NCBI GenBank assembly: GCA_023511295.1
Contig: JAIMBT010000018.1
Location: forward strand, 1 to 64,000
Origin: Alicyclobacillus sp.
GTDB taxonomy: Bacteria; Bacillota; Bacilli; Alicyclobacillales; Alicyclobacillaceae
DNA: 64,000 nt
Direction: 5' to 3'
The position numbers and the translations under genes were made by a program. Each line of letters begins with the position of its first letter. Position 1 is the stretch's first letter. Below the pieces are notes generated by a model. That model ran no database searches and was not told the DNA's origin. It saw only the letters and a program-made list of their open reading frames with translations. Of this stretch, positions 24,069-40,312 are shown piece by piece.

Positions 24069-24773
24069 TTGTCGTTATCGGAGCGCAGCCCGCGGCCGCT
24101 CGCGCAGACCAACCCAAAGTCCCCTGTCGTGGAGGCATACCGCACGATTCGCACCAACCTCCAGTTTGCCAGTGCCGTTGAGGACGTTCAGGTGGTCCTG
24201 GCGACGAGCACCCTGCCGGCGGAAGGCAAGACGTCGACGGTTTGCAACGTCGGCGTCGTCACAGCCGAAGCGGGCCGAAACGTGCTGCTCATCGACGCTG
24301 ACCTGCGCAAACCGCAGATTCACCAGCGGTTTCAAGTCACGAACCTGCGCGGCCTGAGCTCTCTGCTGATTCGCGAGAGCACGTTTGAGGAAGCCCTTGT
24401 GGAAAGCGGGACGCCGGGTTTGACCCTGTTGCCGAGCGGACCCATTCCACCAAACCCGTCGGAGTTGCTGTCGTCCAAGCGGTTTACCGAAATCCTCGAA
24501 GCGGCTCGTCAGTCCTACGACCTCATCCTGGTTGACAGCCCGCCCGTCCTTTCGGTGGCGGACGCACTCGTGCTCTCCCGCGCAGCGGACGGTGTGCTGT
24601 TCGTCGTCGACGCGCAGAACACCAACCGCAAGCTGGCGCAAAAGGCTGTCTCTTCGTTGCGCCAAATCAACGCCCGCGTCCTTGGAACGGTGCTCAACCG
24701 CATGAAACACGAGCCGGGCGATGGGTACTACTACTACAGTTACTACAACTCCGGACCGAGCACGTCCGCCTGA
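24069..24773 (+). CDS. Bacterial tyrosine kinase, CpsD/EpsB type
   Basis: Cytoplasmic BY-kinase of 234 residues controlling exopolysaccharide synthesis. Walker A is LPAEGKTST (Lys54), Walker A' LLIDADLRKP (about 73-82), Walker B LILVDSPP (about 153-160). The C-terminus has the typical tyrosine cluster GYYYYSYYNSG that is autophosphorylated. TTG start with AAGGAG upstream. The activating membrane adaptor is the next gene, only 13 bases downstream. In most Firmicutes the adaptor gene precedes the kinase; here the order is reversed. Confidence 0.9.
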   Translation: MSLSERSPRPLAQTNPKSPVVEAYRTIRTNLQFASAVEDVQVVLATSTLPAEGKTSTVCNVGVVTAEAGRNVLLIDADLRKPQIHQRFQVTNLRGLSSLLIRESTFEEALVESGTPGLTLLPSGPIPPNPSELLSSKRFTEILEAARQSYDLILVDSPPVLSVADALVLSRAADGVLFVVDAQNTNRKLAQKAVSSLRQINARVLGTVLNRMKHEPGDGYYYYSYYNSGPSTSA

Positions 24774-24786
24774 CAACCAGAGGTGC

Positions 24787-25470
24787 ATGATGGAAGAATT
24801 GGAACTTCGAGAGTACTGGCAAATCATTCGCAAGCGCTGGCTGTTGGTCGTTCTGATTCCGGTGATTGCCGTCGTCGTGAGCGGCATCCTGTCGTTTTTC
24901 GTTATCCAGCCGCAGTACAGCGCCAGTACCACGCTCTTGGTCAACCAGAAGGCGGACAGCACCAACCCGCTGCAGTACCAAGACATCCAGGTGAGCGAGG
25001 CGTTGGTCAACACCTACACCAACATCATCAAGAGCCACACGATTGAGTCGCAAGTGGTTTCGGACCTGGGCCTGTCCATGCCTGTGTCGCAGTTGGACAA
25101 GATGATCAGCGTGACCTCGCCGAACCAATCCCAAGTGATTGAGGTCACGGTCACCGGACCGAGCCAAAGTCAGGCGGCTCGGATTGCCAACCAACTGGCC
25201 CAAGTGTTCCAAGGCAAGGCGCAAACCTTGATGGACGTGCAGAACGTCCAGATTATCGACCCGGCATTGGTGCAGTCCAACCCCGCCCCTGTGAAGCCGA
25301 ACAAGAAGTTGAACGTCTCCATCGCCCTCATCCTCGGGCTGATGGTGAGCGTCGGTCTCGCCTTTTTGCTCGAGTATCTGGACAACCGGATTCGAACCGA
25401 AGAGGACGTCCACCGCTACCTCGACCTCCCGGTTCTCGGAGCGGTCACAGACTTCAACGCGAAGAAATAG
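24787..25470 (+). CDS. Wzz-type chain-length determinant/kinase adaptor (CpsC/EpsA/YveK-like)
   Basis: Polysaccharide co-polymerase of 227 residues with two transmembrane helices (about 19-41 and 177-197) that flank an extracytoplasmic domain. The first helix follows ELREYWQIIRKRWLL, the usual Wzz start. A PVKPNKKLNV proline-rich motif precedes the second helix, and the cytoplasmic tail (about 30 residues) would activate the kinase encoded upstream. ATG at 24787 or the next codon. Transcription probably ends at the hairpin 50 bases downstream, so the pair is not joined to the biosynthetic genes further right. Confidence 0.88.
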   Translation: MMEELELREYWQIIRKRWLLVVLIPVIAVVVSGILSFFVIQPQYSASTTLLVNQKADSTNPLQYQDIQVSEALVNTYTNIIKSHTIESQVVSDLGLSMPVSQLDKMISVTSPNQSQVIEVTVTGPSQSQAARIANQLAQVFQGKAQTLMDVQNVQIIDPALVQSNPAPVKPNKKLNVSIALILGLMVSVGLAFLLEYLDNRIRTEEDVHRYLDLPVLGAVTDFNAKK

Positions 25471-25587: not shown

Positions 25588-26259
25588 TCAGTGCAGGCGC
25601 TGGTACGCCTGCTCCATGTCGATAATCTCGGCCGGGGTAAAGTGCGACAAAATCTGTTCCTTGATAGCCGTCTTCTGCGCCTCGGTCAACGAGCTGCGAT
25701 GGAGATACTCCGTCATGTAGTGAGCAATCTCCGATGCCGTGAAGTGACTCATGGCGTAATCAATCAGCTGTTGGCGGCTGGTGAAGGTGGGAACCGACGC
25801 CCCTGGTGAAGATGTCCCGGTCGAACCTCCGGCGTTCCCGCCACCGCTGCCAGATGCGCCAGGCGCAGTAGAACCCGCACCACTGAACCCGTTTGACCCG
25901 GTGCGGGTCCCCGCTTCCCCGGCGGACCCGACGGGAGGTAGAGACCCGCCGGTTCCGTCCTGTCCACGCGCTTTGCCGCCTGAACTGCCTGCGGCCGTTC
26001 CGCCACTCGCGGCGCTGTTCTGGCTGCTCTGCAGACCGCTCAGACTACCCACAACGTTCACGTCGACCCCAGTCCCGTCAAGCTTATTGGCGAGCGCCGG
26101 GTCATTCGTCAGCTGGTGGAGCTCATTCTGAACGGAGGGATCATTCAGGGTCGCAATCACCTGGGCACCGACGCGCTCCTTCACAACTCGGTCGGCATAC
26201 CACCCTCCCGCCGCAAGGACACAGACGACGAGGAGTGTGTACAACGGCCACCGCTTCAT
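25588..26259 (-). CDS. Membrane-anchored protein with Gly/Ser linker and duplicated SHFTxxEI helical motif
   Basis: 223 residues, not assigned to a known family. One N-terminal membrane helix (about residues 6-22) is followed by about 40 residues of charged helix, a low-complexity Gly/Ser/Pro linker of about 90 residues, and a C-terminal helical domain. The latter carries two similar halves: YAMSHFTASEIAHYMTEYL and EQILSHFTPAEIIDMEQAYQ. ATG at 26259 is chosen because it starts the basic-plus-hydrophobic anchor MKRWPLYTLLVV. It follows the surface-protein gene upstream by 10 bases, so the two are probably cotranscribed. An adaptor or spacer role at the cell surface is a guess. Confidence 0.7.
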   Translation of the reverse strand: MKRWPLYTLLVVCVLAAGGWYADRVVKERVGAQVIATLNDPSVQNELHQLTNDPALANKLDGTGVDVNVVGSLSGLQSSQNSAASGGTAAGSSGGKARGQDGTGGSLPPVGSAGEAGTRTGSNGFSGAGSTAPGASGSGGGNAGGSTGTSSPGASVPTFTSRQQLIDYAMSHFTASEIAHYMTEYLHRSSLTEAQKTAIKEQILSHFTPAEIIDMEQAYQRLH

Positions 26260-26269
26260 GCGAACGACC

Positions 26270-27961
26270 TCACTGCGGCACTGCGGGGTTGTCCTGTGCG
26301 ACGAACCAAGACTGTCCGTCCCACTGGCTGTGCAAACCCAGTGCATTCAGGATGGGCGTCAGGTACCAGATGGGCATGTACGTCGTCAGCTTCCCGGTAC
26401 TCGGGTCTTTCGCCTGCACACCTTTCACGTTCTCCACCCGCACGCCGTTCATCAGGATGCCCATCTCCCCCTTGACGGCTGAAGCTCTAGGCAACGCCGC
26501 GGGGCCCACATTCGATGGGGAAAACGTGAGGTTCCACGTCTGGCCGTTCCAATACGGCGTGACACCGAGTGATTTGAGCAGGGACCCGACGTACCAGATG
26601 GGCATGTACGTCGTTCCACCTTGCACCACCGCCGGCACCACGTTCTGGACGTGACCGTTCAGTTGGATGTCCCGCTGATACGCCTTCATCTTGGGTGCTG
26701 CCTGCGGATTCAGCACCACCAGGGTCGTGTTGGGACCTGCGACGGACAGCGTCACGTCCGCGCTCCCTGGAGAAAGCTGAGCGTTCACGTGTTGCAACCC
26801 GTTTACGGTCAGCTGATACACGACCGACCCCGTACGGATCTGCGCGTTCTCAACGTGCACCTGCACGCGGACTGGGGCCGGAGTGGATTCTGTGCCGGCT
26901 ACCCCAGCGGTGTCCACCGCCAGCGTAAATGCGGTCAGTGGTTTGAATCCCCCTGGCAGGATGGCTTGTATCGGCGACAGGTTGTCCGCCATCGTCAGTT
27001 GCAGGGTCGGGGGTGCGCTCGAGAGTCCGCCGCTGCCGCCCGTGCCGTTCTCGGGTTCCGCTGTCACTTGCAAGGCGGTGCTTCCACTCTTCGCCTGCAA
27101 TTGGGCACCTGGATTCGCGGTGACCTCCGCCATCAGGTTCGAAATCGCGCCGAGCGCCTGCTGCACCAGCTTCGCAGCCGCGGGCGGCAAGGTGCTGACG
27201 GCGTTCCCGCCAGACGGGCTGTTAGATCCGCTCCCGTCACCGCCACCACCACCGGCCCCCCCTGAGATGGCGCCAGCCCCGCCACCGTTCGCCGCAAAAA
27301 TCGCCGCGATAGCCGGGAAACCGCTGGTGACGCTGTGGAAGGACGAGCTCAACTGCTGCTTGACGGCATCGGCCGTCACGGTGCCACCGCCGTCCTTCAG
27401 GCCAATCATCGCGGCGACGACGGATGTCTCCAGGTCGCTCAGGTACGTGAGCGCATCGCTCTCCGTCACCGCATCGCCACCGAGGGACTGCAGGTCCGAC
27501 ACCGCCTCGTTGACAGCGCTCTCCGCATCTGCCTCGTCCGTGATGCTGAGGTTGGTCATCGACTGGATGACGGGGACCAGCGTGTTGGCCGCCTGCTGCT
27601 GCGACGTCGACAGGGCGGACCCCGACGCACCGAATACGATTTGATCCCAGTCGGTACTCGTAAGCGACTGCACATCCGTGACCAGGCTCCCGCCAACGGT
27701 CTTCGCCAGGGTCGCCACGTTCACGATGGAATCGGCCACCGACTGGACCGTTGGTCCGGAGCCCGTGGCGGCGTACGCCGCTGCGGGGGTTGTGAAGGCG
27801 GACGACGCCAGGACTGCAAGCGCCGTACCCGCAAGCGCGGTCATCGGCTTCGAAAACATGCGTGATGAGCGGCCGGCATGGGACCTACGGCGGCGATGGG
27901 ATGAATCGCGGTCACTCGAAGCGTGACGGCGGTGCGTTTCCACATGGGAACCGTGACGCAT
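26270..27961 (-). CDS. Secreted surface protein with DWDxIVFG domain and paired CuAO-N-like modules
   Basis: 563 residues. A long basic N-terminal region precedes a signal peptide (MTALAGTALAVLASSAFTTPAAAYA). A helical domain of about 110 residues with the motif STDWDQIVFG comes next, then a Gly-rich linker, a beta-rich domain, and two C-terminal copper-amine-oxidase-N-like repeats (TTYMPIWYVGSLLKSLG with WNGQTW; TTYMPIWYLTPILNALG with WDGQSW). No catalytic site is visible. The helical domain is shared with the 31.9-34.0 kb surface protein, in the opposite order relative to the repeats. Start at 27961 has GAGAGGGGGAG upstream. Probably a structural component of the cell surface. Confidence 0.7.
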   Translation of the reverse strand: MRHGSHVETHRRHASSDRDSSHRRRRSHAGRSSRMFSKPMTALAGTALAVLASSAFTTPAAAYAATGSGPTVQSVADSIVNVATLAKTVGGSLVTDVQSLTSTDWDQIVFGASGSALSTSQQQAANTLVPVIQSMTNLSITDEADAESAVNEAVSDLQSLGGDAVTESDALTYLSDLETSVVAAMIGLKDGGGTVTADAVKQQLSSSFHSVTSGFPAIAAIFAANGGGAGAISGGAGGGGGDGSGSNSPSGGNAVSTLPPAAAKLVQQALGAISNLMAEVTANPGAQLQAKSGSTALQVTAEPENGTGGSGGLSSAPPTLQLTMADNLSPIQAILPGGFKPLTAFTLAVDTAGVAGTESTPAPVRVQVHVENAQIRTGSVVYQLTVNGLQHVNAQLSPGSADVTLSVAGPNTTLVVLNPQAAPKMKAYQRDIQLNGHVQNVVPAVVQGGTTYMPIWYVGSLLKSLGVTPYWNGQTWNLTFSPSNVGPAALPRASAVKGEMGILMNGVRVENVKGVQAKDPSTGKLTTYMPIWYLTPILNALGLHSQWDGQSWFVAQDNPAVPQ

Positions 27962-28196
27962 GGGCTCTCCCCCTCTCCTATGTACGCGGAGTCAATCAGC
28001 AATCCTTGTCCCTATTCTACCATTCGCACGAACCAACGGGGCTCTGACTGTCAGATCAGCCAACCGAGCGAAGAGAGTGGATAGGAGACCGCGCAGCGGC
28101 GGTGAAGTCGGCCGTACGCTGGCCAAGGCCGCGTGCCGCCCCCATCCCGCCGCCAGGCGGTCTGCCATGGAGGCCAGCTGCCTGCGTGGTCCGCGC
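27962..28196. other. Spacer between surface-protein and GT39 genes
   Basis: About 235 bases. It must contain the promoter of the surface-protein gene. No clear promoter pair or terminator hairpin was identified by eye. Confidence 0.3.
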
Positions 28197-29525
28197 TCAA
28201 ACTTCCCGCGGAGCCGTCGCCGGCGGTGCCTCCGAACGGTCTCGTCGTTGACCGGTGAATCCGGCCGACAACGCCCACACCCCCACCGGGAGGCCCAGCA
28301 TCACCAAAGGCATCAGCGGCTCGCTGTAGCGGCTGTAGACGAAGTACACACTGTAGAGGGCCGTGTAGTACAGGAAGGTCGCCAACACCAGGAGCGTGGT
28401 CCAGCGTCGTTTGCGGCCGAAGGCGAGCGCGACCAACCACCCGATGAACCCTGCCCACAGCGCCACCCGGTGCCACGCGAGAACGAGCTTCGGCGACAGG
28501 TGCAAGATCTTCAAGGTGTAAAACGGCTTGCTCCACAGCAGTATCGGCTTGAACACCAGGTACGCGTGCAGAAACGCACGTGGGTTCTCGGCATACCACG
28601 CCTTCATCCGCTGCTTCGCCACCTGAGTTTGCAGCGTCATCCACGGCACCTCGTGGTCGGCCGTCGGGCGAAGGTCCGGGTGCTGTGCCTTGAGCAGGGT
28701 GATCTCCAGGTCCGCGTTCCCCGGCGGCGGGTAGTGCTGTCCTTGAAAGGTGCCGAGCAGCAACGGGTTCCCCGTGCCGTCGGTCAGTGGCACAAAGTGG
28801 TGAAACGTCCATTCGTTGCGCACCCACCACGGGCTCAGCAACAGCGCCACCATCACCACCGATAGGACACCATGCCGAAGGAGCTTCCGGGGCGGGAAGC
28901 GGCGCACCAGCAGGTACGCCCAGGCGACCACGAGGTATGCCGAGATGGTCGGGCGAAAGTACAGGCAGACCACGTAGAACAGGGTCGCCAGATAGAGATG
29001 GAGCGGGCGATGTTCTCGACCGGCGCGGACAAGGAAGTACAGCAGGAACATCGATGCCGCAAAAAACGGCGTCTCGGTCAACAGGAGGACGTCCGTCTCG
29101 ACGCCTGGTATGTAGACCGCCGCGAGCAGCGCAGCCACGACGCCCACCCACGGCCGAAAAGCGGTGCGCGCGGTCAGATACAGGCCCCAGATGCCGACCA
29201 CACCGATGCAGCTCATCACGACCTTCGCCGCCACCACGCCGGCGGCACCCGTGCCGAAAACGCTGAACACGCCTGCGAGCAGCAACGTGATACCGGGCAT
29301 CATGTGCAGCGTCGGGTGTTCCGGCGTGTAATAACTGTACACGCCCCGCGTGAGCAGCCAACGGGCGCTGTCGGTGTATCCTTGGTCGTCGCTGTGCAGG
29401 GTCAGCTGCAGTCCGTAGTGCCAGATGACGGCAAACCGGATGACCAGCGCCAGCACCAAGATACCCCCGCACAACCCGTCCGATGCCGTCACGCGAAAGC
29501 GGCGCACACCCCGCAGCTCTTCCAT
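28197..29525 (-). CDS. GT39-like membrane glycosyltransferase (ArnT/PMT type)
   Basis: 442-residue integral membrane protein with about 11 hydrophobic segments. The first extracytoplasmic loop carries HSDDQGYTDSARWLL, matching the acidic DD/DE motif of GT-C enzymes that use polyprenyl-phosphate sugars. The family transfers a sugar from a lipid carrier to an envelope acceptor on the outer face of the membrane. ATG at 29525 follows AAGGAGAAGGCC; the frame extends 22 codons more. It is divergent from a polyprenyl-phosphate sugar synthase-like GT2 gene and a small flippase-like gene, which suggests one pathway. Confidence 0.82.
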   Translation of the reverse strand: MEELRGVRRFRVTASDGLCGGILVLALVIRFAVIWHYGLQLTLHSDDQGYTDSARWLLTRGVYSYYTPEHPTLHMMPGITLLLAGVFSVFGTGAAGVVAAKVVMSCIGVVGIWGLYLTARTAFRPWVGVVAALLAAVYIPGVETDVLLLTETPFFAASMFLLYFLVRAGREHRPLHLYLATLFYVVCLYFRPTISAYLVVAWAYLLVRRFPPRKLLRHGVLSVVMVALLLSPWWVRNEWTFHHFVPLTDGTGNPLLLGTFQGQHYPPPGNADLEITLLKAQHPDLRPTADHEVPWMTLQTQVAKQRMKAWYAENPRAFLHAYLVFKPILLWSKPFYTLKILHLSPKLVLAWHRVALWAGFIGWLVALAFGRKRRWTTLLVLATFLYYTALYSVYFVYSRYSEPLMPLVMLGLPVGVWALSAGFTGQRRDRSEAPPATAPREV

Positions 29526-29673
29526 CGGCCTTCTCCTTCCTCCACGCCTTACCGCACCGTCCTCGTGGGACGGGCGTCGAACGTTGTCCATCCCTGTCAG
29601 TGTAGCACGGGCGGTGAAGGCGCTGCACCCTTGTGCAGGCAGTTCCGCGCGCTTTGTGGTAGAGTGATCTTAA

Positions 29674-29681
29674 TTGTCGAA
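29674..29681 (+). promoter_or_regulatory. Spo0A-box-like site between GT39 and GT2 genes
   Basis: TTGTCGAA, identical to the site at 19354, lies 71 bases before the GT2 start and between two divergent genes. Confidence 0.4.
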
Positions 29682-29751
29682 GGCGGACGATCTCGGTCGA
29701 ACCATCTGGCCGAACGGCGATCCGCTCCCGCGAATGGACGGATGATTTGGC

Positions 29752-30744
29752 ATGAAGGTTGCAGTGCTCATCCCCTGCTATAACGAGGCACAGACAATCG
29801 AAAAGGTGATCCGGGATTTCCGCTCCGCCCTGCCCGGCGCCGCCATCTACGTCTACGACAACAACTCGACGGACGGGAGTGCGCGACTGGCGGAGGCCTG
29901 CGGGGCGCTCATTCGGCGCGAACGGCGTCAGGGCAAAGGCCACGTCGTGCGCACCATGTTTCGCGAGGTGGACGCCGACCTGTACGTCATGGTCGACGGC
30001 GACGACACCTACCCTGCGGACGCGGTCCATCAGTTGTTGGATCCAATTGCCTGTGGGGACGCCGATATGGTCGTGGGGGATCGGCTGTCCAACGGATCGT
30101 ACGGCAAAGAGAATAAGCGCACCTTCCACGGCGCCGGCAACCGCATCGTTCGCTGGCTCATCAACCGCTTGTTCCGGGCGTCCTTGCAGGACATCATGAG
30201 CGGTTACCGGGCCTTCAGCCGGAGTTTCGTGGAGAACTTGGCGGTGATGAGCGAGGGCTTCGAGATTGAGACGGAAATGACCCTCAACGCGCTGGACAAA
30301 CAGTTCCGCGTACTCGAGGTGCCGATTGACTACCGAGATCGGCCAGAGGGCAGCTTTTCGAAGCTGAACACCGTCCGCGACGGCATGCGCGTGTTGAAAA
30401 CGGTGTTCTGGATTTTCAAGGATTACAAACCGCTGGTCTTCTTCGGCAGCCTGGCGGCGCTGTTCTTCCTGCTCGGGCTCGCCGTCGGCCTCCCTCCGAT
30501 TCTGGAATTCATCCAGACGCACTACATCTGGAAGGTGCCGTCGGCCATCCTCGCGGTCGGGTTCATGATGCTCTCGTCCATCTCGCTGACGTGTGGGCTC
30601 ATCCTCGACACCATCGTGCGCCACCACCGCGAGCTGCAGCAGGTGCTCATCCTGCAACACACGAGGCGTGGGTTTGCGGAGAGCCCATGGCTGGCAGCGG
30701 GCGAGGCGGCACCGACATCCATCGCCCGCCGGCAGGAGGGGTGA
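29752..30744 (+). CDS. GT2 glycosyltransferase, polyprenyl-phosphate sugar synthase-like
   Basis: 330 residues. The N-terminal GT-A domain (VAVLIPCYNEAQTIEKVI, DNNSTDGS, VMVDGDDTYPADA with the metal-binding Asp pair) resembles DPM1, GtrB and ArnC enzymes that make polyprenyl-phosphate-linked sugars on the cytoplasmic side. Two C-terminal transmembrane helices (about 232-252 and 262-288) anchor it. ATG at 29752. The next gene starts seven bases after its stop and encodes a four-helix EamA/ArnE-like protein, the usual flippase partner of this type of enzyme. Confidence 0.87.
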   Translation: MKVAVLIPCYNEAQTIEKVIRDFRSALPGAAIYVYDNNSTDGSARLAEACGALIRRERRQGKGHVVRTMFREVDADLYVMVDGDDTYPADAVHQLLDPIACGDADMVVGDRLSNGSYGKENKRTFHGAGNRIVRWLINRLFRASLQDIMSGYRAFSRSFVENLAVMSEGFEIETEMTLNALDKQFRVLEVPIDYRDRPEGSFSKLNTVRDGMRVLKTVFWIFKDYKPLVFFGSLAALFFLLGLAVGLPPILEFIQTHYIWKVPSAILAVGFMMLSSISLTCGLILDTIVRHHRELQQVLILQHTRRGFAESPWLAAGEAAPTSIARRQEG

Positions 30745-30750
30745 GTTTCC

Positions 30751-31104
30751 GTGGCGAATGCGCTGAACGTCGTTCTGATTGCACTGAACATCTGCCTGCT
30801 CGTGGCGGGCCAAACGCTGTGGAAGCTGGGACTCGCCGCCCACCCGCTGCGCGGCCTAGGCAGCGCCGTGCTCGCCTTGTTCACACCGTACATCTTGTCC
30901 GGGATTGTGCTCTACGCCATCGCGACGGTGGTGTGGATCTACCTGCTGTCCCGCCTGCCCATCAGCCTGCTGTACCCGCTGCAGAGCTTGGCGTACGTAC
31001 TGACTGCTGTTGTGGCCCTCGTCTTCTTCCAGGAGCACATCTCTGCGACGCGGTGGATTGGGATTGGCGTGATTTTGGTGGGCGTCGCGCTGGTGGTGAA
31101 GTAG
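30751..31104 (+). CDS. EamA/SMR-like small transporter, ArnE-type lipid-sugar flippase candidate
   Basis: 117 residues, four transmembrane helices, like a half EamA domain. SLLYPLQSLAYVLTAVVAL and a FFQEHISATRWIGIGVILVG end (given as FFQEHIS and RWIGIGVILVG) are typical of the ArnE/ArnF and SMR group. GTG start with AGGAGGGG upstream, seven bases after the GT2 gene. By context it may carry the polyprenyl-phosphate sugar across the membrane for the GT39 enzyme. ArnE and ArnF work as two proteins in enterobacteria; only one is present here, so it may be a homodimer. Confidence 0.8.
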   Translation: MANALNVVLIALNICLLVAGQTLWKLGLAAHPLRGLGSAVLALFTPYILSGIVLYAIATVVWIYLLSRLPISLLYPLQSLAYVLTAVVALVFFQEHISATRWIGIGVILVGVALVVK

Positions 31105-31144
31105 GGCCGCGCGCGGAACACGGAAGCGTGCGAAGCGGGGAAGG

Positions 31145-31666
31145 TCAGTAGGAACCGACGAATTCCAACTCCGGTGACTGCGACAGTTCGCCTGGGGTCG
31201 GATAGGTGATGCCGGGACAGAGATCAATCCCGACGGACTGATACGCCTCCAGCCACAACGTGGTACAAATGTGCCGGCGCTTCAGCGCACACACGGGCAT
31301 CATCTCTCCAAACAGGTGCCGACACGCCAAAAAACCGAACAGCACGTAGTCGTAGCGTGTCCCGATGTGCTTCGTGACATACGCCACAATCGCCCGCCGG
31401 TCTTTCTCCGTCAGACGTGGACAGGTGAACACGTCCGACACACCCTGGTAACAGGTCAAGTCCTGGTATCCCGTCCGGCGCAGCGCCTGCGACTCAATCA
31501 ACCGGTCGTCGAAGATGGCGCCGGCCACGTGGGTGTAGGGACTCCGCGTGATCTTCTTAATGGGACCTGCGACGCCTTCTGTGCCGCGGATGAAAATCAG
31601 ATCACCCGGTTTAATCTCCAAGTGCACCGGCTGAGAGACGGGACGGACCACGGTTGCGCTTGTCAT
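31145..31666 (-). CDS. YiiX/YebB-like permuted papain-fold cysteine amidase
   Basis: 173-residue soluble protein of the circularly permuted NlpC/P60 group. The order of catalytic residues is permuted: the GDLIFIRG strand, then His in PYTHVAGAIFD, later Cys in HICTTLWLEAY. Such enzymes cut amide or ester bonds in lipids or peptidoglycan. No signal peptide is visible, so it may act in the cytoplasm or be released by lysis. Start at 31666 with GGAG upstream; an alternative is 31690. A promoter-like module at 31750-31780 matches one upstream of the O-antigen-ligase-like gene. Confidence 0.78.
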   Translation of the reverse strand: MTSATVVRPVSQPVHLEIKPGDLIFIRGTEGVAGPIKKITRSPYTHVAGAIFDDRLIESQALRRTGYQDLTCYQGVSDVFTCPRLTEKDRRAIVAYVTKHIGTRYDYVLFGFLACRHLFGEMMPVCALKRRHICTTLWLEAYQSVGIDLCPGITYPTPGELSQSPELEFVGSY

Positions 31667-31749
31667 GCGGTGATCATCTCCTCTGTCCACGATGATGCGA
31701 GACCCCGGGGTCGCGAGCGCGACACCAGCGTCCTCGGCTATGCTTCATG

Positions 31750-31780
31750 ATTATATACGGGACCTGTCAAGAAGATGTGG
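31750..31780 (-). promoter_or_regulatory. Duplicated 31-bp promoter-like module, copy 1 (amidase gene)
   Basis: Reading on the minus strand: CCACAT, 4 bases, TTGACA, 9 bases, TATAAT. The same three elements with identical spacing occur at 37049-37079. The TTGACA-TATAAT distance of 9 is too short for a normal sigma-A promoter, so TTGACA may be part of an activator or alternative sigma site. The TATAAT is about 85 bases before the amidase start. Confidence 0.6.
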
Positions 31781-31853
31781 AGGGCGGGACGGAAGGGTGG
31801 ATGTGCGGTGGAGAGCGGACGACTATCCTGACGAATTCGCCCGCTTTCATGCA

Positions 31854-31891
31854 TCCGGCACGACACTTCTCGTCGGAAGTCTCGTGCCGGA
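31854..31891 (-). terminator. Hairpin downstream of surface-protein gene
   Basis: TCCGGCACGACACTTC can pair with GAAGTCTCGTGCCGGA with one mismatch. It lies about 30 bases after the stop of the 705-residue surface protein and before the amidase promoter module, so it probably ends that transcript. Confidence 0.6.
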
Positions 31892-31922
31892 CACACACTC
31901 CGCCTTTGACGGGAGAGGAGCC

Positions 31923-34040
31923 TTACTGGACGGTCACCTGAACCCGTACCACGGTGTACCCATCGACGCTCGCCGTGAGCGTCGCGGTGCCTGCCTTGAT
32001 CCCCACCACCTGACCGTTGCTCACCGACGCGATAGTGGTGTCCAAACTCGTCCACGTCACCATCGACGACAGCACAGTGAAGCCATCGAGCCCGGCCGGA
32101 GCGTCCGAGTTGAACGTGAGCGTCGGCAGCGTCGTCGTCTCTCCAGCGGTTAAGGAAATCGGTTGAACAGGTACCAGGTACTTGCTTGCGGCCGCCTGCG
32201 TGAGGGCGTTGACGGCGTCCGTGAACGTCTGCTGGCCAATCTTCGCCTGAAGCCTTCCGTCGATAGCGGACAGGCCGGCCGCGGATACGTCCACTCCGTC
32301 ATCCCGAAGCGCACCGGCGAACGTTGTGTTGCTCGAATCGCTGATGGGAGTCCCCGCTAGCGCCATGGACAAAGCGGAGGAGACCGGACCCGAACCAGAC
32401 TGGCTGCTGGACGTCCCCGTTACAAATTCAGCAATCAAGTCGTCCTTGAACTTCAGGTAGAGGTTGTAGAGCCCATCCACGGTCACGCCGCTGTTCACCT
32501 GTTGCAGGTCGGCCACGGCCTGAAGCACTTCCGATTGCGCCTTCGTGTCGTCCGCGAAATTGGAGAACGTAGCGAGGTTCACAATATCCTTCACTGCGGT
32601 TGTCACAGAGGAGTTCGCCGAACCGGTCCCGAACACGATGGCATCCCAGTCACTGGTGGACAGCCCCTGCTCTGCCAGCTCCGCGGCCTGCACCTTAGCC
32701 AAGGTACCATTTGTCTGCAACGTCTCGTGCAACGTGTTCAGCTTCTGGACCAGCCGGTCCAGCGTCTGCTGCTCCTCGGAATTCAGTGTGTTGCTGTTTC
32801 CACCGCCACCACCGCCACCAACGACACCGCCGGCGCCACCGCCACCGCCGGTCGTCGTGCCGCCCGGCGCATTGCCCTCCGTCGTGGTCACCGTGCCAGA
32901 ACCGGAAAGCGAGACCGCATCCGAGTTACTGTTGTTGACCAATGTCGTGATGGTTCCGTTGTTGGTGATGGCCACCTTGCCGACGGTCTTGTCGACCGCC
33001 ACCTGGTTGACGGTTGCCCCCTGGTCAATCTGCAGCGTGACGTTGCTGCCGCTGATGCGCAGCGTGCCCACCTTGGAGCCAGCCGGAATCTCAATCGTCG
33101 CGCCGCCCGTGACCGTGACGCTGTCAAAGGAACCGGTGAGCGCAATCTGGCCGCTGCCGGCGACGGTCACTTCGCCTACGGAACCCGCCTGCTGCTCCAG
33201 TGTCACACTGTGCTGCTCGGTGTGCGCGACATTCGTCTGGCCAATCTGCGTGTTGCCCTGAACGACGATGTGGATGTCAGACGCGCTCGCAATCTCCAGC
33301 AGCGGCGACGTGACGCCGTCCAAGTAGACGGAGTGCGAAGCCCCCGACAGGACGACAATCGACCCAGTCGCTGTCACGTTGTCGAGGTGCACCGTGCCGT
33401 TCGCACCGGGGTTGATGTAGATGTTCCCGTCGACCTTCACGTTTTGCACCGTGACACCGGTACCGGTGATGACCAGGTTCTGATGGATCTCCTGGGTGCC
33501 GGTCGACGGCCCGTAAGACCCCGCCTTCACGGTCACCGGCGAGGTCTCCATCCAGATGTGATGCACGCCGTCCCACTTCGTCTGAATCCCAACCGCCTCC
33601 AACAGCGGCTGTACGTACCACACCGGGACGTACGTCGTGAGCACCGCGTGTTTTCCGCCAGCCGGGTCCTTGCGGGCCATCGTGTTGATCTTCTTCACGA
33701 CCTGACCGTTCACGGTGATGACCGTATTCCCAGAACCCACCTGCAACCCGGACAAGTCCGGATTCGCGTTGGCGTTGGTGATGGCCCACGTGTGTCCATC
33801 CCACTTCGCCTGATACCCCGCCTTTGCCAGCACCTGGTCGATGTAGTACATCGGCATGAAGGTCGTCAGGTTGCTCCCGTCGCTTGCGATGAAACCGTAT
33901 GGCTGGCTGACCGTTTTCCCGTCCAGCGCAATGGACGCGCGGAACGCGTGGTTCGGTGCTTTGTTGGCAGCGAAGGCCGTCGGCGTCAAGCTGCCGAGCA
34001 CGAGGCTGGCTGCAATCAGACCCGCAATCCGTCGATTCAC
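31923..34040 (-). CDS. Large surface protein: paired CuAO-N-like modules, beta-helix-like region, DWDxIVFG domain, Big2-like domain
   Basis: 705-residue secreted protein. Signal peptide MNRRIAGLIAASLVLGSLT-PTAFA. Two copper-amine-oxidase-N-like repeats come first (LTTFMPMYYIDQVL with WDGHTW; LTTYVPVWYVQPLL). A long Val/Thr/Gly-rich stretch of about 200 residues follows, with short repeating beta strands suggesting a right-handed beta-helix. A poly-Gly linker (GGGGGAGGVVGGGGGGGN) leads to a helical domain with STSDWDAIVFG, also found in the 26.3-28.0 kb protein. The C-terminus has a Big2/Ig-like domain (WTSLDTTIASVSNGQVVGIKAG, split as WTSLDTTIASVS and GQVVGIKAG). No enzyme motif; probably a surface adhesin or scaffold. 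Confidence 0.75.
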   Translation of the reverse strand: MNRRIAGLIAASLVLGSLTPTAFAANKAPNHAFRASIALDGKTVSQPYGFIASDGSNLTTFMPMYYIDQVLAKAGYQAKWDGHTWAITNANANPDLSGLQVGSGNTVITVNGQVVKKINTMARKDPAGGKHAVLTTYVPVWYVQPLLEAVGIQTKWDGVHHIWMETSPVTVKAGSYGPSTGTQEIHQNLVITGTGVTVQNVKVDGNIYINPGANGTVHLDNVTATGSIVVLSGASHSVYLDGVTSPLLEIASASDIHIVVQGNTQIGQTNVAHTEQHSVTLEQQAGSVGEVTVAGSGQIALTGSFDSVTVTGGATIEIPAGSKVGTLRISGSNVTLQIDQGATVNQVAVDKTVGKVAITNNGTITTLVNNSNSDAVSLSGSGTVTTTEGNAPGGTTTGGGGGAGGVVGGGGGGGNSNTLNSEEQQTLDRLVQKLNTLHETLQTNGTLAKVQAAELAEQGLSTSDWDAIVFGTGSANSSVTTAVKDIVNLATFSNFADDTKAQSEVLQAVADLQQVNSGVTVDGLYNLYLKFKDDLIAEFVTGTSSSQSGSGPVSSALSMALAGTPISDSSNTTFAGALRDDGVDVSAAGLSAIDGRLQAKIGQQTFTDAVNALTQAAASKYLVPVQPISLTAGETTTLPTLTFNSDAPAGLDGFTVLSSMVTWTSLDTTIASVSNGQVVGIKAGTATLTASVDGYTVVRVQVTVQ

Positions 34041-35664: not shown

Positions 35665-36966
35665 TCACGGTGCGCCGGCCGTCGCTCCGGCCGGGGCTTC
35701 TCGGCCGTCCGACTCCGCTTCCGACGCGGCGGTCGACTGCGCTGTGGAAGCCTCCTCCGCCCACAGGATGTACAGCACGGCGAGCGAGAAGTACAGTACC
35801 GTCATGGGGCCGAACTCAAACACGTTCTCGACGGTGTTGTGCAGTACCACCGCCACCAGTCCGATGAACCCGCCAATCGCCACGGTACGCCGGCGCCCAG
35901 CCACGCATTTGATGGCCCGCACGAACACCTCGCGCAGCAAGGCGATGTGCATCGCGATGAACAGAACCAGACCCAGCAGGCCCGATTCCCCGAGGACTTT
36001 CATGTAGTAGTTGTCCGAGTAAATGCCAAGGCCGAAGTCGGAAGCCACCTGCCCGCCGTAGCGGCCAATCCCCGCGCCAAACAGCGGGTTCGCCGACATC
36101 GTGTCGTAGGCCACCCCCCACCGGAACAGCCGTCCTCCTTGCTCCGCCTTCAACAGGTACACCGGCGAGAACAGGTCCATGAAGCGGTGGTGAATCGGCG
36201 GCAGGAAGAAGCCAATCACGCCGAGCACGACGACGACAATCAGCAGCCGCGGCTGGACCAACGCCGCCACAATCACAATCGCGCCGACCAGGGCGAGCAG
36301 AGATCCGCGGTCGTAGGTGACGAGGTGCGTCCCGAAGCAGACGACCGCCCCGAAACCGTACAGCAGCTTTCGCCAGCGGTTGCGCTCGTACAGACAGAGG
36401 CCGACCAGCAGCGGCACCATGAGCGCCATGTACGCACCCAGTTCGTTCGGGCTCGTGATGATGGAGAACACCCGCGTGCGGACGTGCTCCGACACATCGA
36501 CCCAGCCACTCGGAATCGGCACGGCCGCGATGTACTGGTAGATGCCGTCCACCCCGACCAGCATCGCCACCGCCACTGCGGCGTGCAGCAGCCTCGGCAC
36601 GTCCCGCGGCTCGACGACGAACGGAATCAGCAGGGCGAACACCAGGTAGAACAGGTCGGCGCGCAGCCCGTCGAACGCCACCGCCGGGTGGCTCAGGCCC
36701 GCAAACGTCAACCCGATGAGGTAGACCGTGTACCAGCCTGCGTAGCGCGTCCACGCGAACTTCGTCGGTCGATAACCCGTGAGCCACCGCAGGGCGGCGA
36801 GGACTGCGAGGATGAGCAGGTCAATCACGCTCCACACGGACCCCAACGGGCTGAGATGGGGCGTGTGGCGAAGGGCGAAGTCGACCAGCGGAAACGCCAT
36901 GATGGCGTACACGGACCAGCGGCCGAGCCGCGACGAATCGAGACCGTAACCGGTATGGAGTTGCAA
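35665..36966 (-). CDS. O-antigen ligase/polymerase-like membrane protein
   Basis: 433 residues, about 11-12 hydrophobic segments, with a large extracytoplasmic loop between roughly residues 285 and 350 that contains RLFRWGVAYDTMSANPLFGAGIGRYG (given in part: MSANPLFGAGIG). That H/NPLxGxGxG motif is typical of the WaaL/Wzy/TuaE superfamily, which joins or polymerises lipid-linked glycans. TTG start at 36966 chosen because GAGGGAG lies at good spacing and the TATAAT at 37049-37054 would overlap the upstream ATG at 37050. Transcribed from the duplicated promoter module. Confidence 0.82.
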   Translation of the reverse strand: MQLHTGYGLDSSRLGRWSVYAIMAFPLVDFALRHTPHLSPLGSVWSVIDLLILAVLAALRWLTGYRPTKFAWTRYAGWYTVYLIGLTFAGLSHPAVAFDGLRADLFYLVFALLIPFVVEPRDVPRLLHAAVAVAMLVGVDGIYQYIAAVPIPSGWVDVSEHVRTRVFSIITSPNELGAYMALMVPLLVGLCLYERNRWRKLLYGFGAVVCFGTHLVTYDRGSLLALVGAIVIVAALVQPRLLIVVVVLGVIGFFLPPIHHRFMDLFSPVYLLKAEQGGRLFRWGVAYDTMSANPLFGAGIGRYGGQVASDFGLGIYSDNYYMKVLGESGLLGLVLFIAMHIALLREVFVRAIKCVAGRRRTVAIGGFIGLVAVVLHNTVENVFEFGPMTVLYFSLAVLYILWAEEASTAQSTAASEAESDGREAPAGATAGAP

Positions 36967-37011
36967 CGGATCATCTCCCTCTAGGTCAGAGCTCTCCAAC
37001 CCGACAGAAAA

Positions 37012-37044
37012 CCGGACCGCTGGATGGCTCCTGTGACGGTCCGG
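37012..37044 (-). other. 5' leader hairpin of the O-antigen-ligase-like gene
   Basis: CCGGACCG (37012-37019) can pair with CGGTCCGG (37037-37044), an 8-bp stem at the expected 5' end of the transcript. It may stabilise the mRNA or affect initiation. Confidence 0.35.
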
Positions 37045-37048
37045 CGTC

Positions 37049-37079
37049 ATTATAGTATGAACATGTCAAGAGAATGTGG
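37049..37079 (-). promoter_or_regulatory. Duplicated 31-bp promoter-like module, copy 2 (ligase-like gene)
   Basis: Minus strand: CCACAT, 4 bases, TTGACA, 9 bases, TATAAT, the same elements and spacing as at 31750-31780. Also similar between copies is the short run TCTTGACA. The spacing suggests an activator site or unusual sigma factor rather than a plain -35/-10 pair. Confidence 0.6.
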
Positions 37080-37096: not shown

Positions 37097-38707
37097 TTAC
37101 GTCAAGGTCACGCGCTGTACCGTGACCCCGGCCGCGCCGCCCGGCGCGATGTTCACCCAGCCCAGCGAAATGCTCCCGTCTGCGGAAAGGTTCATGTTGT
37201 TGAACGTGATGGACAGGCCGTTTGCCACCGGCACCTTCAGCTCCACAGAAGATCCTGCCACGGGCGTGGTCAGTCCGTCAAAACTCGCCGCCCGCGTCCA
37301 GGTGACGCCCCCGTCGGTGCTGTATTGGAGGTCGTCCTGGCTTCGCGCCACTGCAAACCACCGCCGATCTGCACTCACAGGCATCGTCACGACCATCGTG
37401 TCGCCTTGCAGTTGGATTTGGATACCATCGAAAAACGCGTACGTGGCCGCAATGGTCTGCTGGATGCTCGGCGAAGACGACGCAGTGTAGATAGGTGCGC
37501 CACTCGCCGTGGTATCGCCCGAGAACGTCCACGTCCACTCGTTGTGCGGCGTGTACAGGACGTGGATGACGTTGCCGCTCTGGACCATGCCCGCCTCGAG
37601 GTTCCGCACGTTTTGCACCAGTTGCTGTTCATCGGCGGTCGTCAGGAAGCCGTTGGCGGCCGTCTGCCCGTTCACGCCGGAAAGGTTATGGGTCAGACCG
37701 ACGAGCGAGGCCCAGTTGTCGAGCGTAATCCCCGGCTGGTACGCGGCCTGACTCGCGGTGATGCCGAGATCATTCCAGAAGAGCTGCTCGGCATCCTGCA
37801 GCGTGACGGCATCCCCGGCGCCGAAATGCGACGCGGAGAACGGCTGCACCAGCCCGGCTTGCACCGCGGCCTCATCCCCTGCGTAGTACGGAGACGTCGC
37901 CGGGAGATCATCGTACGGGCTGGACGCCGGCACGGACGCCGTCGACAGCTGGAGTGCCGCCGCCATATCCGACACCATCTGGGCGCGCGTCACCGCACCC
38001 GGATACTGAGACGCCTGCGGGTTGGTGTCCGCGGGCGGCGGTGGGGTTGGGCTGCCCGTCCCCGTCGAGCCGCTGCCGGAACCGCCACTGCTGCCGGTGC
38101 TGCCGCCGGGGGCAGAGCCACCGCTGCCGGTGCTTGATCCGCCGCTGCCCGTACCCGACCCCCCGGCACCGCTCCCACTCGCGGCGACGGGCTTCATGTT
38201 CCAATGGGTTCCGTCCCAATCGGTGTGGATGTTCAGGCGCTTCAGGACCTGCATGATGTACCAGATGGGCAGGTACGTCGTCGGCTTGCCGCTGGACGGG
38301 TCCGTGTACACAATCCGATCAACCTTCTGCACAACCGTACCGTTCAGGTAGATGGAAATGCTGCCCGTCCCCGGACTCACCTTCGTCAGGTCAACGTTCG
38401 CGTTCTTCGGCGCGGTGATCTTCCACGCCGTATCGCTCCACTGGTTGGTGATCTTCATCGTGTCAAGCGTCTGCATGATATACCAGATGGGCAGGTAGGT
38501 TGTATGGTTCGCCACAAACCCGTAGGGCGCGTAGACCTGCTTACCCTGCCAGGAGATGGTCTTCTTCGTCAATTGGTAGGTCGGCTTTGCCGAGGTATGG
38601 TTCTGGTTCGCTGCAAAGGCGGCCAACCCGCCCCCGCCCACCGCACTTACAACCGCAGCGAAAGCGGTCGCGGTCGCGAGCGCTGCGGCCCACGGACGTT
38701 TCTGCAC
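37097..38707 (-). CDS. Surface protein with paired CuAO-N-like modules and SLH-like domain
   Basis: 536-residue secreted protein; signal peptide ending near GLAAFA-ANQ. Two copper-amine-oxidase-N-like repeats (TTYLPIWYIMQTLDTM; TTYLPIWYIMQVLKRLN with WDGTHW) are followed by a Gly/Ser/Pro linker of about 55 residues. A region resembling S-layer homology repeats comes next (AVTRAQMVSDMAAALQL, SPYYAGDEAAVQAGLVQP, GDAVTLQDAEQLFWN). The last 200 residues form a beta-rich domain of unknown type. SLH repeats bind pyruvylated wall polymers, so this protein may be held to the wall. It starts 27 bases after the DUF4855 gene, so the two are probably one operon. Confidence 0.75.
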   Translation of the reverse strand: MQKRPWAAALATATAFAAVVSAVGGGGLAAFAANQNHTSAKPTYQLTKKTISWQGKQVYAPYGFVANHTTYLPIWYIMQTLDTMKITNQWSDTAWKITAPKNANVDLTKVSPGTGSISIYLNGTVVQKVDRIVYTDPSSGKPTTYLPIWYIMQVLKRLNIHTDWDGTHWNMKPVAASGSGAGGSGTGSGGSSTGSGGSAPGGSTGSSGGSGSGSTGTGSPTPPPPADTNPQASQYPGAVTRAQMVSDMAAALQLSTASVPASSPYDDLPATSPYYAGDEAAVQAGLVQPFSASHFGAGDAVTLQDAEQLFWNDLGITASQAAYQPGITLDNWASLVGLTHNLSGVNGQTAANGFLTTADEQQLVQNVRNLEAGMVQSGNVIHVLYTPHNEWTWTFSGDTTASGAPIYTASSSPSIQQTIAATYAFFDGIQIQLQGDTMVVTMPVSADRRWFAVARSQDDLQYSTDGGVTWTRAASFDGLTTPVAGSSVELKVPVANGLSITFNNMNLSADGSISLGWVNIAPGGAAGVTVQRVTLT

Positions 38708-38734: not shown

Positions 38735-40312
38735 TCACGGATGCTGCATGAAGCTGTAGGTCTCATCGTACACCGCGCGCTCGTTCGGGTCCGTCGCCAG
38801 AAACGACTTGACAAAGTCTTTCGATCCGGCGTAATACGCATGCGACACACTGTCCGCCATCCCGTCGGTTTCCAGTTGCGCGATGGTCTGGTTGTACAGC
38901 GTTTGCACCGAGGGGTACTGCACACCGCCGGAGAGCTCCAGTTCGATACCAAGGCCGAGTTCCTTGGCATACGCGTCCGAATTCGCAACCCGCGAGATGT
39001 CCGCAGCGTTGCCCTGCTCAGCGTAGTTCGGCTGCAGCCAGACCCCGTCAAAGCCGAGCTGTTGCCACTCGGTCAGCCCGGACGCGTCGTAGAACGGGAT
39101 CCAGTAAAAACCATACCCCGCCTGGTGCGCCAGACTCGACGCGTACTGGATGAGGGGCACTTCGCCCGGCGAACTGTAATCCACGTCCTCCTTGTCCCAA
39201 TACAGCCCCACCAGGTCCAGGTTCGCGTAGTGCGCGTTGTTCCAATCCGCAAGCAGGGTCTGCACATACCACTGCAGGGCGGCCTCCCGGGCAGATAGCG
39301 CAGCCGGATCTGCCGCGGTCGCATTGAACAGCAGCGCCTGCCCGTTGGCACTCCCCCAAGCCCCGTCCCCGAACGCTGGATACGGGATGGTCAATACAAC
39401 TTTCTCCTGTTGTCCGTATGTACCGAGCTGTTGGTTCCGCTGTCCGACCGCCGTATTGAGGGCGTCGAGTTGCTGCCCGGGCGTGAACAGGTCGGTGAGA
39501 TAGTTCTGCCAACTCTGCTGGTTATCTTGCAAGCTCCCGTAGGGAAGGAACAGGATGGTATCGAACATCGGACCCAAGCTCTGACCGTTTGGGTTGGTGT
39601 AGGTGACCATCGGCGCAAAGTCGGACGGGCTCCAGGTACCCAGACTCTGGTAGTCTCCGGTGTACACCAGCAGCATGTTGCGGATGCCGCGGCTCCGCGG
39701 GTCATACGCCTCCATCGGCTGCGTGCCCGACGACGGCACGATGCTGGCTCCGCTCGGCACGGCCGGTGCAGCGCCGGGCACGGGGGTACCATTCACCTTC
39801 AAGTTGTGTGCAAAGACCCAGACCGAAACCGGGAAGTGAATCCGGATCTCATTCGTCCGCAACCCACTGAAATGCGCGGTGAACGTCTGGGTCGTCACTC
39901 GCTTGTCCGTAATGGGGACGACGGACTGTTCCGTCGCGACCTGGTACCACTGGCCGCCGGAGTAGGCTTCGAAGTCCACCTGATGCGGGTAGTAGACGCC
40001 ACTGGACGCATCCTGTTCGAACTGGATGGACACGGTCTGAACGTCTGTCGTCTGCGGCAGGGTGACGGTGATGTCCCGCCCGATCTGGCGGCAGAACCCG
40101 CGCCACCCAACCGGCGCGGTGAGGGGCGCACTGTAGGTGGTCTCCATGTTCGAGAACTGGGCGTCCGCCGGTCCCGTGGTGGAAACGGAAATCGCAGCGG
40201 ACGTCGCGAGATTGGGTAGCGTGGCCGCAAACGCCGCGGGCGCGAACAAGACACCGACCGCCGCAGGACCGCACAGGGCGCAGGCGATGGACGCTTTGAT
40301 GCGATGGTTCAA
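38735..40312 (-). CDS. Secreted DUF4855 protein with discoidin-like N-terminal domain
   Basis: 525 residues. Signal peptide MNHRIKASIACALCGPAAVG...AFA-A. The first 160 residues look like an F5/8 type C-like sugar-binding beta sandwich. The rest matches the DUF4855 family, a predicted TIM-barrel group linked to glycosidases: MLLVYTG near residue 210, GLYWDKEDVDY with acidic residues in a likely active site, and FDGVWLQPNY. Start at 40312 has AGGAGGT about 11 bases upstream. A long leader carries a 15-bp minisatellite. Probably acts on or binds an extracellular polysaccharide; activity is unproven. Confidence 0.75.
   Translation of the reverse strand: MNHRIKASIACALCGPAAVGVLFAPAAFAATLPNLATSAAISVSTTGPADAQFSNMETTYSAPLTAPVGWRGFCRQIGRDITVTLPQTTDVQTVSIQFEQDASSGVYYPHQVDFEAYSGGQWYQVATEQSVVPITDKRVTTQTFTAHFSGLRTNEIRIHFPVSVWVFAHNLKVNGTPVPGAAPAVPSGASIVPSSGTQPMEAYDPRSRGIRNMLLVYTGDYQSLGTWSPSDFAPMVTYTNPNGQSLGPMFDTILFLPYGSLQDNQQSWQNYLTDLFTPGQQLDALNTAVGQRNQQLGTYGQQEKVVLTIPYPAFGDGAWGSANGQALLFNATAADPAALSAREAALQWYVQTLLADWNNAHYANLDLVGLYWDKEDVDYSSPGEVPLIQYASSLAHQAGYGFYWIPFYDASGLTEWQQLGFDGVWLQPNYAEQGNAADISRVANSDAYAKELGLGIELELSGGVQYPSVQTLYNQTIAQLETDGMADSVSHAYYAGSKDFVKSFLATDPNERAVYDETYSFMQHP

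What the first reader, a model, noticed from the sequence alone, without database searches (positions are those of the whole stretch)
26270..34040. Undescribed helical domain with DWDxIVFG motif in two surface proteins
The proteins at 26.3-28.0 kb and 31.9-34.0 kb share a domain of about 110 residues with STxDWDxIVFG, followed by similar leucine-rich helices (QAVADLQQ, EAVSDLQS). In one it is N-terminal to the paired modules; in the other it is C-terminal. Shuffled order points to an independent domain that I do not recognise.
Basis: seen in the sequence. Interest (0 to 1): 0.7.

Follow-up and report, generated by a model that had tools for sequence, protein, structure and literature searches.

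The report
Uncatalogued helical domain of surface proteins
Two neighbouring bacterial surface proteins share a real, so far unnamed helical domain; relatives sit in wall-anchored proteins across many Bacillota, mostly beside the genes that control export of sticky sugar polymers, so it probably helps hold that coat on the cell.

Summary
P0001 (26270-27961, -) and P0002 (31923-34040, -) share a domain (here HD) of ~160 and ~205 residues, not ~110. Homology is beyond chance: BLASTP 1e-6; profile-profile P 1.7e-11; cross-profile scores 37 and 28 bits against at most 8.4 for 500 shuffles. Both AlphaFold2 models are confident and all-helical with the same helix order. No Pfam-A or NCBIfam family covers HD, and no PDB structure matches at E<=1e-3. 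HD is portable: it follows the signal peptide in stalk/PG-binding, CWB2 and SLH wall proteins, and occurs in CelB-type GH51 endoglucanases. In Alicyclobacillales two ancient forms (A and B) lie side by side in 7 of 9 genomes. My reading: HD is the wall-distal working module of a surface protein partnered with Wzy-type exopolysaccharide export, probably holding polymer or matrix at the cell surface. The domain and its linkage are shown; the binding role is inferred.

The parts
27287..27766 (-). HD domain, A-type, of P0001 (aa 66-225); N-terminal, after the signal peptide
   Evidence: BLASTP, HMM with shuffles, hhalign, AlphaFold2
26270..27961 (-). P0001, 563 aa: signal, HD-A, Gly-rich linker, beta region (ZU5-like, by eye), paired PF07833-like stalk modules (aa 425-563)
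32172..32786 (-). HD domain, B-type, of P0002 (aa 419-623)
31923..34040 (-). P0002, 705 aa: signal, paired stalk modules (aa 30-170), beta-helix-like repeat region, Gly linker, HD-B, Big_2-like C-terminus
   Evidence: the Big_2-like end is called by eye and by analogy with L006/L085, where Pfam calls Big_2
25588..26346 (-). conserved small one-TM protein, 252-aa ORF, downstream of P0001; found beside the HD gene in seven loci
   Evidence: no Pfam or NCBIfam hit
24721..25470 (+). Wzz chain-length protein (PF02706 63.6 bits, GNVR), the only Wzz in the genome
24069..24773 (+). BY-kinase-type ATPase (CapB/CpsD-like; AAA_31) paired with Wzz
35665..37050 (-). Wzy_C / O-antigen ligase family protein of the same polysaccharide locus
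37097..38707 (-). third stalk-pair surface protein of the locus (aa 44-174), without HD

Best explanation
HD is an undescribed secreted all-helical domain of about 160-205 residues. In wall-anchored proteins it sits at the end away from the anchor (paired stalk modules, PG_binding_1, CWB2 or SLH), usually joined to an Ig-like Big_2 domain. Its genes are a conserved companion of the Wzz / tyrosine-kinase / CpsB-phosphatase unit that controls Wzy-type exopolysaccharide (EPS) export. Most likely mechanism: the anchor fixes the protein to the wall, the beta domains act as spacer, and HD makes the contact that keeps newly exported polysaccharide or matrix on the surface. In CelB-type enzymes the same module would keep a secreted endoglucanase at the surface. 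Shown by computation: the domain, its fold class, its portability, its place in the protein and its gene linkage. Inferred: that HD itself does the binding, and that the ligand is EPS.
For: Homology. SLH-type and CWB2-type HDs align over the full length with the Alicyclobacillaceae B-type: P 7.2e-16 and 8.5e-19. AlphaFold2: pLDDT 87.9 and 85.6, pTM 0.81 and 0.82, matching helices. Architectures. Operon linkage: 19 of 31 non-GH51 regions have Wzz within 10 kb, and the four SLH families found at 1e-6 or better by a profile without any SLH member (f3, f8, f21, f22) all have Wzz, kinase and phosphatase adjacent. All 17 named Paenibacillus loci have phosphatase-[HD-SLH]-Wzz-kinase, co-directional. 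Genomes carry only 1-3 Wzz genes, so chance proximity is roughly 0.6-2% each. The window genome's single Wzz ends less than 1 kb from the P0001 ORF. GH51 fusion; CelB is a characterised extracellular endoglucanase (PMC5901876).
Against: No ligand, phenotype or localisation data. Twelve of 31 regions lack Wzz nearby (f2, f20, f28, f38, f72, f100, f111, most of f12; one contig is only 7.5 kb). CelB-type fusions are not in EPS loci. In the window Wzz and kinase are convergent with P0001, so not one operon there, and no CpsB phosphatase was found in the window. The Paenibacillus f5 group is divergent: the A3 profile reaches only 9e-4, and not every member is re-hit by the A6 profile at ORF level.
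Confidence: 0.45

Rival explanations
1. HD is a protein-protein assembly module: HD-HD contacts (A with B in Alicyclobacillales, self-contacts elsewhere) build a surface lattice or pair two surface proteins, and the EPS linkage only reflects shared expression.
For: A- and B-type genes are neighbours in 7 of 9 genomes with A-type, across two families; both are clades in the HD tree (support 0.99 and 0.78), so the pair is old and kept. SLH and CWB2 anchors are typical of S-layer proteins.
Against: Most SLH-type genomes, and GH51-only genomes such as G026, have a single HD, so a heterotypic partner is not required.
Confidence: 0.3
2. HD binds a wall polymer (peptidoglycan or secondary cell wall polymer) and is a second anchor rather than a displayed module.
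For: It is secreted and near wall-binding modules; in CelB no other wall anchor was recognised.
Against: Proteins with SLH, CWB2 or PG-binding modules already have an anchor; the link is to the EPS export unit, not to wall-polymer genes.
Confidence: 0.15
3. HD is only a structural spacer or folding aid at the N-terminus of secreted proteins.
For: CelA4, a GH51 glucanase 42-44% identical to CelB, is active with its catalytic domain starting at residue 39, so the region is not needed for catalysis (PMC2880286).
Against: In P0002, L005 and L022 it is internal or C-terminal; it is strongly tied to one kind of locus.
Confidence: 0.1

Closest known systems
PF07833 (Cu_amine_oxidN1; 'stalk' domain proteins)
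   Same: The paired TTYMPIWYV...WDG modules of P0001, P0002 and P0003 resemble it and share the polypeptide with HD
   Different: HD is all-helical, separate, and not covered by this family; P0001 and P0003 score below the gathering cut-off
SLH-anchored surface proteins of Bacillota (PF00395), e.g. SlhA of Paenibacillus alvei
   Same: The same plan: signal, exposed N-terminal part, C-terminal SLH domains; SlhA is needed for swarming and biofilm formation (PMC3776848)
   Different: SlhA is described with an N-terminal CBM6, not HD, and lies beside wall-polymer genes
CpsB/Wzz/BY-kinase EPS phosphoregulatory unit (EpsAB of Bacillus subtilis, PepA/PepB of Paenibacillus polymyxa)
   Same: The neighbours of HD genes are members of these families
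   Different: The pep clusters tabulated for P. polymyxa (PMC7911366) were searched for S-layer or SLH terms and hold none
CelB (Aaci_0048), GH51 endoglucanase of Alicyclobacillus acidocaldarius
   Same: The G026 homologue, also 959 aa, has HD at aa 41-238
   Different: HD there is fused to an enzyme; a published account calls CelB's N-terminal domain carbohydrate-binding-like (PMC5901876), which Pfam did not reproduce

Membership tests
Any existing Pfam-A family for HD | Score above the gathering cut-off in the HD region | tested here: not met
   20 members scanned: every weak hit is to one member only; full proteins of the main architectures show no HD-covering family above its cut-off
Any NCBIfam family for HD | Score above cut-off in the HD region | tested here: not met
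   hits are only to SLH, CWB2, PG-binding or GH and other non-HD regions
Any fold with a solved structure | Foldseek E<=0.001, or a consistent sequence-profile hit | tested here: not met
   None at E<=0.001 for either model; the best PDB profile hit is FIS at about 1e-3, a short helical DNA-binding protein, not supported by fold. Foldseek is weak on helical bundles
HD family (this report) | Full-length profile homology between subtypes | tested here: met
   A1-A2 1.7e-11, A1-A4 7.2e-16, A1-A5 8.5e-19; A2-A4 alone is not significant, 0.09
HD family (this report) | DWDxIVFG motif | tested here: inconclusive
   W is at least 90% conserved in the B-type set, but not all members keep it: SLH-type members have other versions, L028 has DLEQVMF
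PF07833 | Gathering cut-off 24.2 bits for the paired modules | tested here: inconclusive
   17.8 and 18.1 bits in P0001 and P0003, none listed for P0002, 27.4 in the relative L006
GH51 (CelB-type partners) | Homology to GH51 arabinofuranosidases | tested here: met
   PDB 3s2c at 4.5e-13, 3ug3 at 7.3e-13; NCBIfam ArfA partial
Polysaccharide-binding module (function) | Measured binding to EPS or wall polymer | not testable with these tools
   needs a binding assay

The most novel reading that the evidence does not exclude
HD defines a new, widespread class of wall-anchored proteins encoded with the Wzz/tyrosine-kinase/CpsB unit that tether Wzy-type exopolysaccharide to Bacillota cells, a protein route for capsule retention distinct from covalent attachment to peptidoglycan.
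Probability: 0.3. Interest if true: 0.75.

Novelty: new variant of a known kind. Interest (0 to 1): 0.55.

Why it matters
How Gram-positive bacteria without an outer membrane keep Wzy-type exopolysaccharide on the cell is only partly understood. A recurring, unannotated surface-protein domain encoded beside the chain-length and tyrosine-kinase regulators gives a concrete candidate for that link. It also gives function-poor S-layer-homology proteins in Paenibacillus and relatives a testable context, and accounts for the extra N-terminal region of a characterised enzyme (CelB).

Tried and rejected
Known-family explanations: Pfam, NCBIfam, PADLOC and PDB sequence and fold searches gave nothing consistent. 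FIS (about 1e-3) and DUF2408 (5e-4 in a single member) were judged chance matches to helical or compositional sequence. Weak single-sequence hits in chemoreceptors, dehydrogenases and others (E 0.01-0.1) were dropped after reading the proteins. The first genome-contig scan with P0002 alone found no relative. An obligatory A-B heteromer was rejected as a general model because many genomes have one HD only. The CelB primary paper is not held. SlhA and the P. polymyxa pep clusters were checked as possible literature precedents and do not match.

Full report
Observation. Both ORFs exist as stated. The DWDxIVFG pattern occurs only in these two genes of the 3.43-Mb genome. BLASTP aligns the two segments at 1e-6, and a whole-genome search with the P0002 segment returns, besides itself, only P0001 (2.7e-5). 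With HMMs from which the tested copy's subtype was left out, the real segments score 37.1 and 27.7 bits while the best of 500 shuffles reach 8.3 and 8.4; Smith-Waterman is 112 against a shuffle maximum of 84. Profile-profile comparison of the two subtypes gives P 1.7e-11 over 140 columns. The domain (HD) is longer than described: about 160 residues in P0001 and about 205 in P0002.

Fold. AlphaFold2 gives confident all-helical models: pLDDT 87.9, pTM 0.81 for P0002 HD and 85.6, 0.82 for P0001 HD. The helices correspond in order (B: 3-25, 29-40, 44-52, 59-73, 80-97, 103-124, 133-145; A: 7-24, 26-33, 37-45, 54-71, 78-99, 102-125, 132-148) and the DWD motif lies in the third helix of both. B-type has further C-terminal helices that A-type lacks. 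Foldseek against the PDB found nothing at E<=0.001 for either.

Not a catalogued family. No Pfam-A model covers HD in 20 members or in full proteins, and no NCBIfam model does. InterPro member databases and UniProt could not be searched.

Relatives. A profile of HDs from the window's order (A3) finds HD in 16 of 41 genomes of the family and in 3 genomes of a second family of the order. Without any SLH protein in it, the profile also finds SLH proteins of four further families at 2.4e-13 to 9.7e-7. Profile-profile comparison confirms full-length homology of these (P 7.2e-16) and of the CWB2 type (8.5e-19). The shorter A-type alone does not reach the SLH type significantly (0.09); it is linked through the B-type. 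A wider profile reaches further families and classes of Bacillota. That the window comes from the Alicyclobacillaceae is inferred from its relatives, not from a name given by a tool.

Architectures. (i) signal-HD-A-beta region-paired stalk modules, as in P0001; (ii) signal-stalk pair-beta-helix-like region-HD-B-Big_2-like, as in P0002, L005, L022; (iii) signal-HD-Big_2 or beta region-stalk pair-PG_binding_1 (L006, L020, L023); (iv) signal-HD-Ig-like-CWB2 repeats (L081-L083); (v) signal-HD-Big_2-SLH (L085-L088 and others); (vi) signal-HD-GH51. The last matches A. acidocaldarius CelB: the G026 homologue has 959 aa with HD at 41-238, the length reported for CelB/Aaci_0048 (PMC5901876). CelA4, a glucanase of Alicyclobacillus sp. 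A4 with 42-44% identity, has its catalytic domain starting at residue 39 (PMC2880286), so the extra N-terminal region is not needed for catalysis. In the HD tree GH51-fused HDs form a clade inside the B-type (support 0.999 for the clade, 0.78 for B, 0.99 for A), as expected of a module that moved once into an enzyme. The joint A+B node is poorly supported (0.24).

Context. The window is a polysaccharide locus: tyrosine-kinase ATPase (24069-24773), Wzz (24721-25470), small one-TM protein (25588-26346), P0001, glycosyltransferases, P0002, Wzy_C protein (35665-37050) and another stalk-pair protein (37097-38707). A- and B-type HD genes are neighbours in 7 of 9 genomes with A-type. Of 31 non-GH51 HD regions taken without regard to context, 19 have Wzz within 10 kb: f1 6 of 7, f5 7 of 7, f3, f8, f21, f22 and f62 1 of 1 each, f12 1 of 3; f2, f20, f28, f38, f72, f100 and f111 none. 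Genomes carry 1-3 Wzz genes, so about 0.6-2% would be expected per gene; the loci within one genus are not independent, hence the count by family (8 of 15). In all 17 named Paenibacillus loci the order is CpsB-type phosphatase, HD-SLH protein, Wzz, kinase on one strand. The Paenibacillus HDs are the most divergent; they rest on the wider profile, position after the signal peptide, and shared context. CelB-type genes are not in such loci.

Mechanism. Shown: a secreted helical module, usually at the wall-distal end of anchored proteins, tied to the EPS export-control unit and portable into a secreted glycosidase. Inferred: HD contacts exported polysaccharide or matrix and keeps it, or the attached enzyme, at the surface. 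The best rival is a self-assembly role, favoured by the kept A-B pair but not required by single-HD genomes. No tool here can measure binding.

Novelty. The domain appears absent from Pfam and NCBIfam, and limited paper searches found no description of it or of its link to EPS operons (open-access library only). It is a new domain within the known kind 'wall-anchored surface protein', hence a new variant rather than a categorically new system.

Noticed in passing
window 25588-26346 (-): Small one-TM protein with a low-complexity middle and a conserved C-terminus (FTSRQQLIDYAMSHFTASEIAHY...ILSHFTPAEI), seen beside HD genes in seven loci including another family (L139:1528-2127); no Pfam or NCBIfam match.
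   Followed up: partly
window 11038-12741 (-): A further protein with the paired stalk modules (aa 117-253, E about 1e-37), outside the HD cluster; the window has four such proteins.
   Followed up: no
window 38735-40312 (-): DUF4855 protein (301 bits) with a weak F5/8 type C domain, next to a stalk-pair protein at the edge of the polysaccharide locus.
   Followed up: no
L131-L133 (second family of the order): The B-type partner carries CW_binding_2 repeats and resembles clostridial S-layer SlpA in NCBIfam (partial), yet stays next to an A-type HD gene: the anchor differs while the pair was kept.
   Followed up: partly
L137:4518-7397 and L135:5949-9326: CelB-type GH51 endoglucanases have HD after the signal peptide and beta-sandwich-like C-termini without a recognised anchor; the literature calls the N-terminus carbohydrate-binding-like, which Pfam did not reproduce.
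   Followed up: partly
P0002 aa ~175-395 (about window 32850-33520, -): Beta-helix-like repeat region (short repeats of the NVxVxGxIxI kind) between the stalk modules and HD; no Pfam hit.
   Followed up: no
L007:2-784 (G029, contig end): HD protein preceded by a long GST repeat linker, at a contig end, grouping with GH51-type HDs; the upstream part is missing.
   Followed up: no
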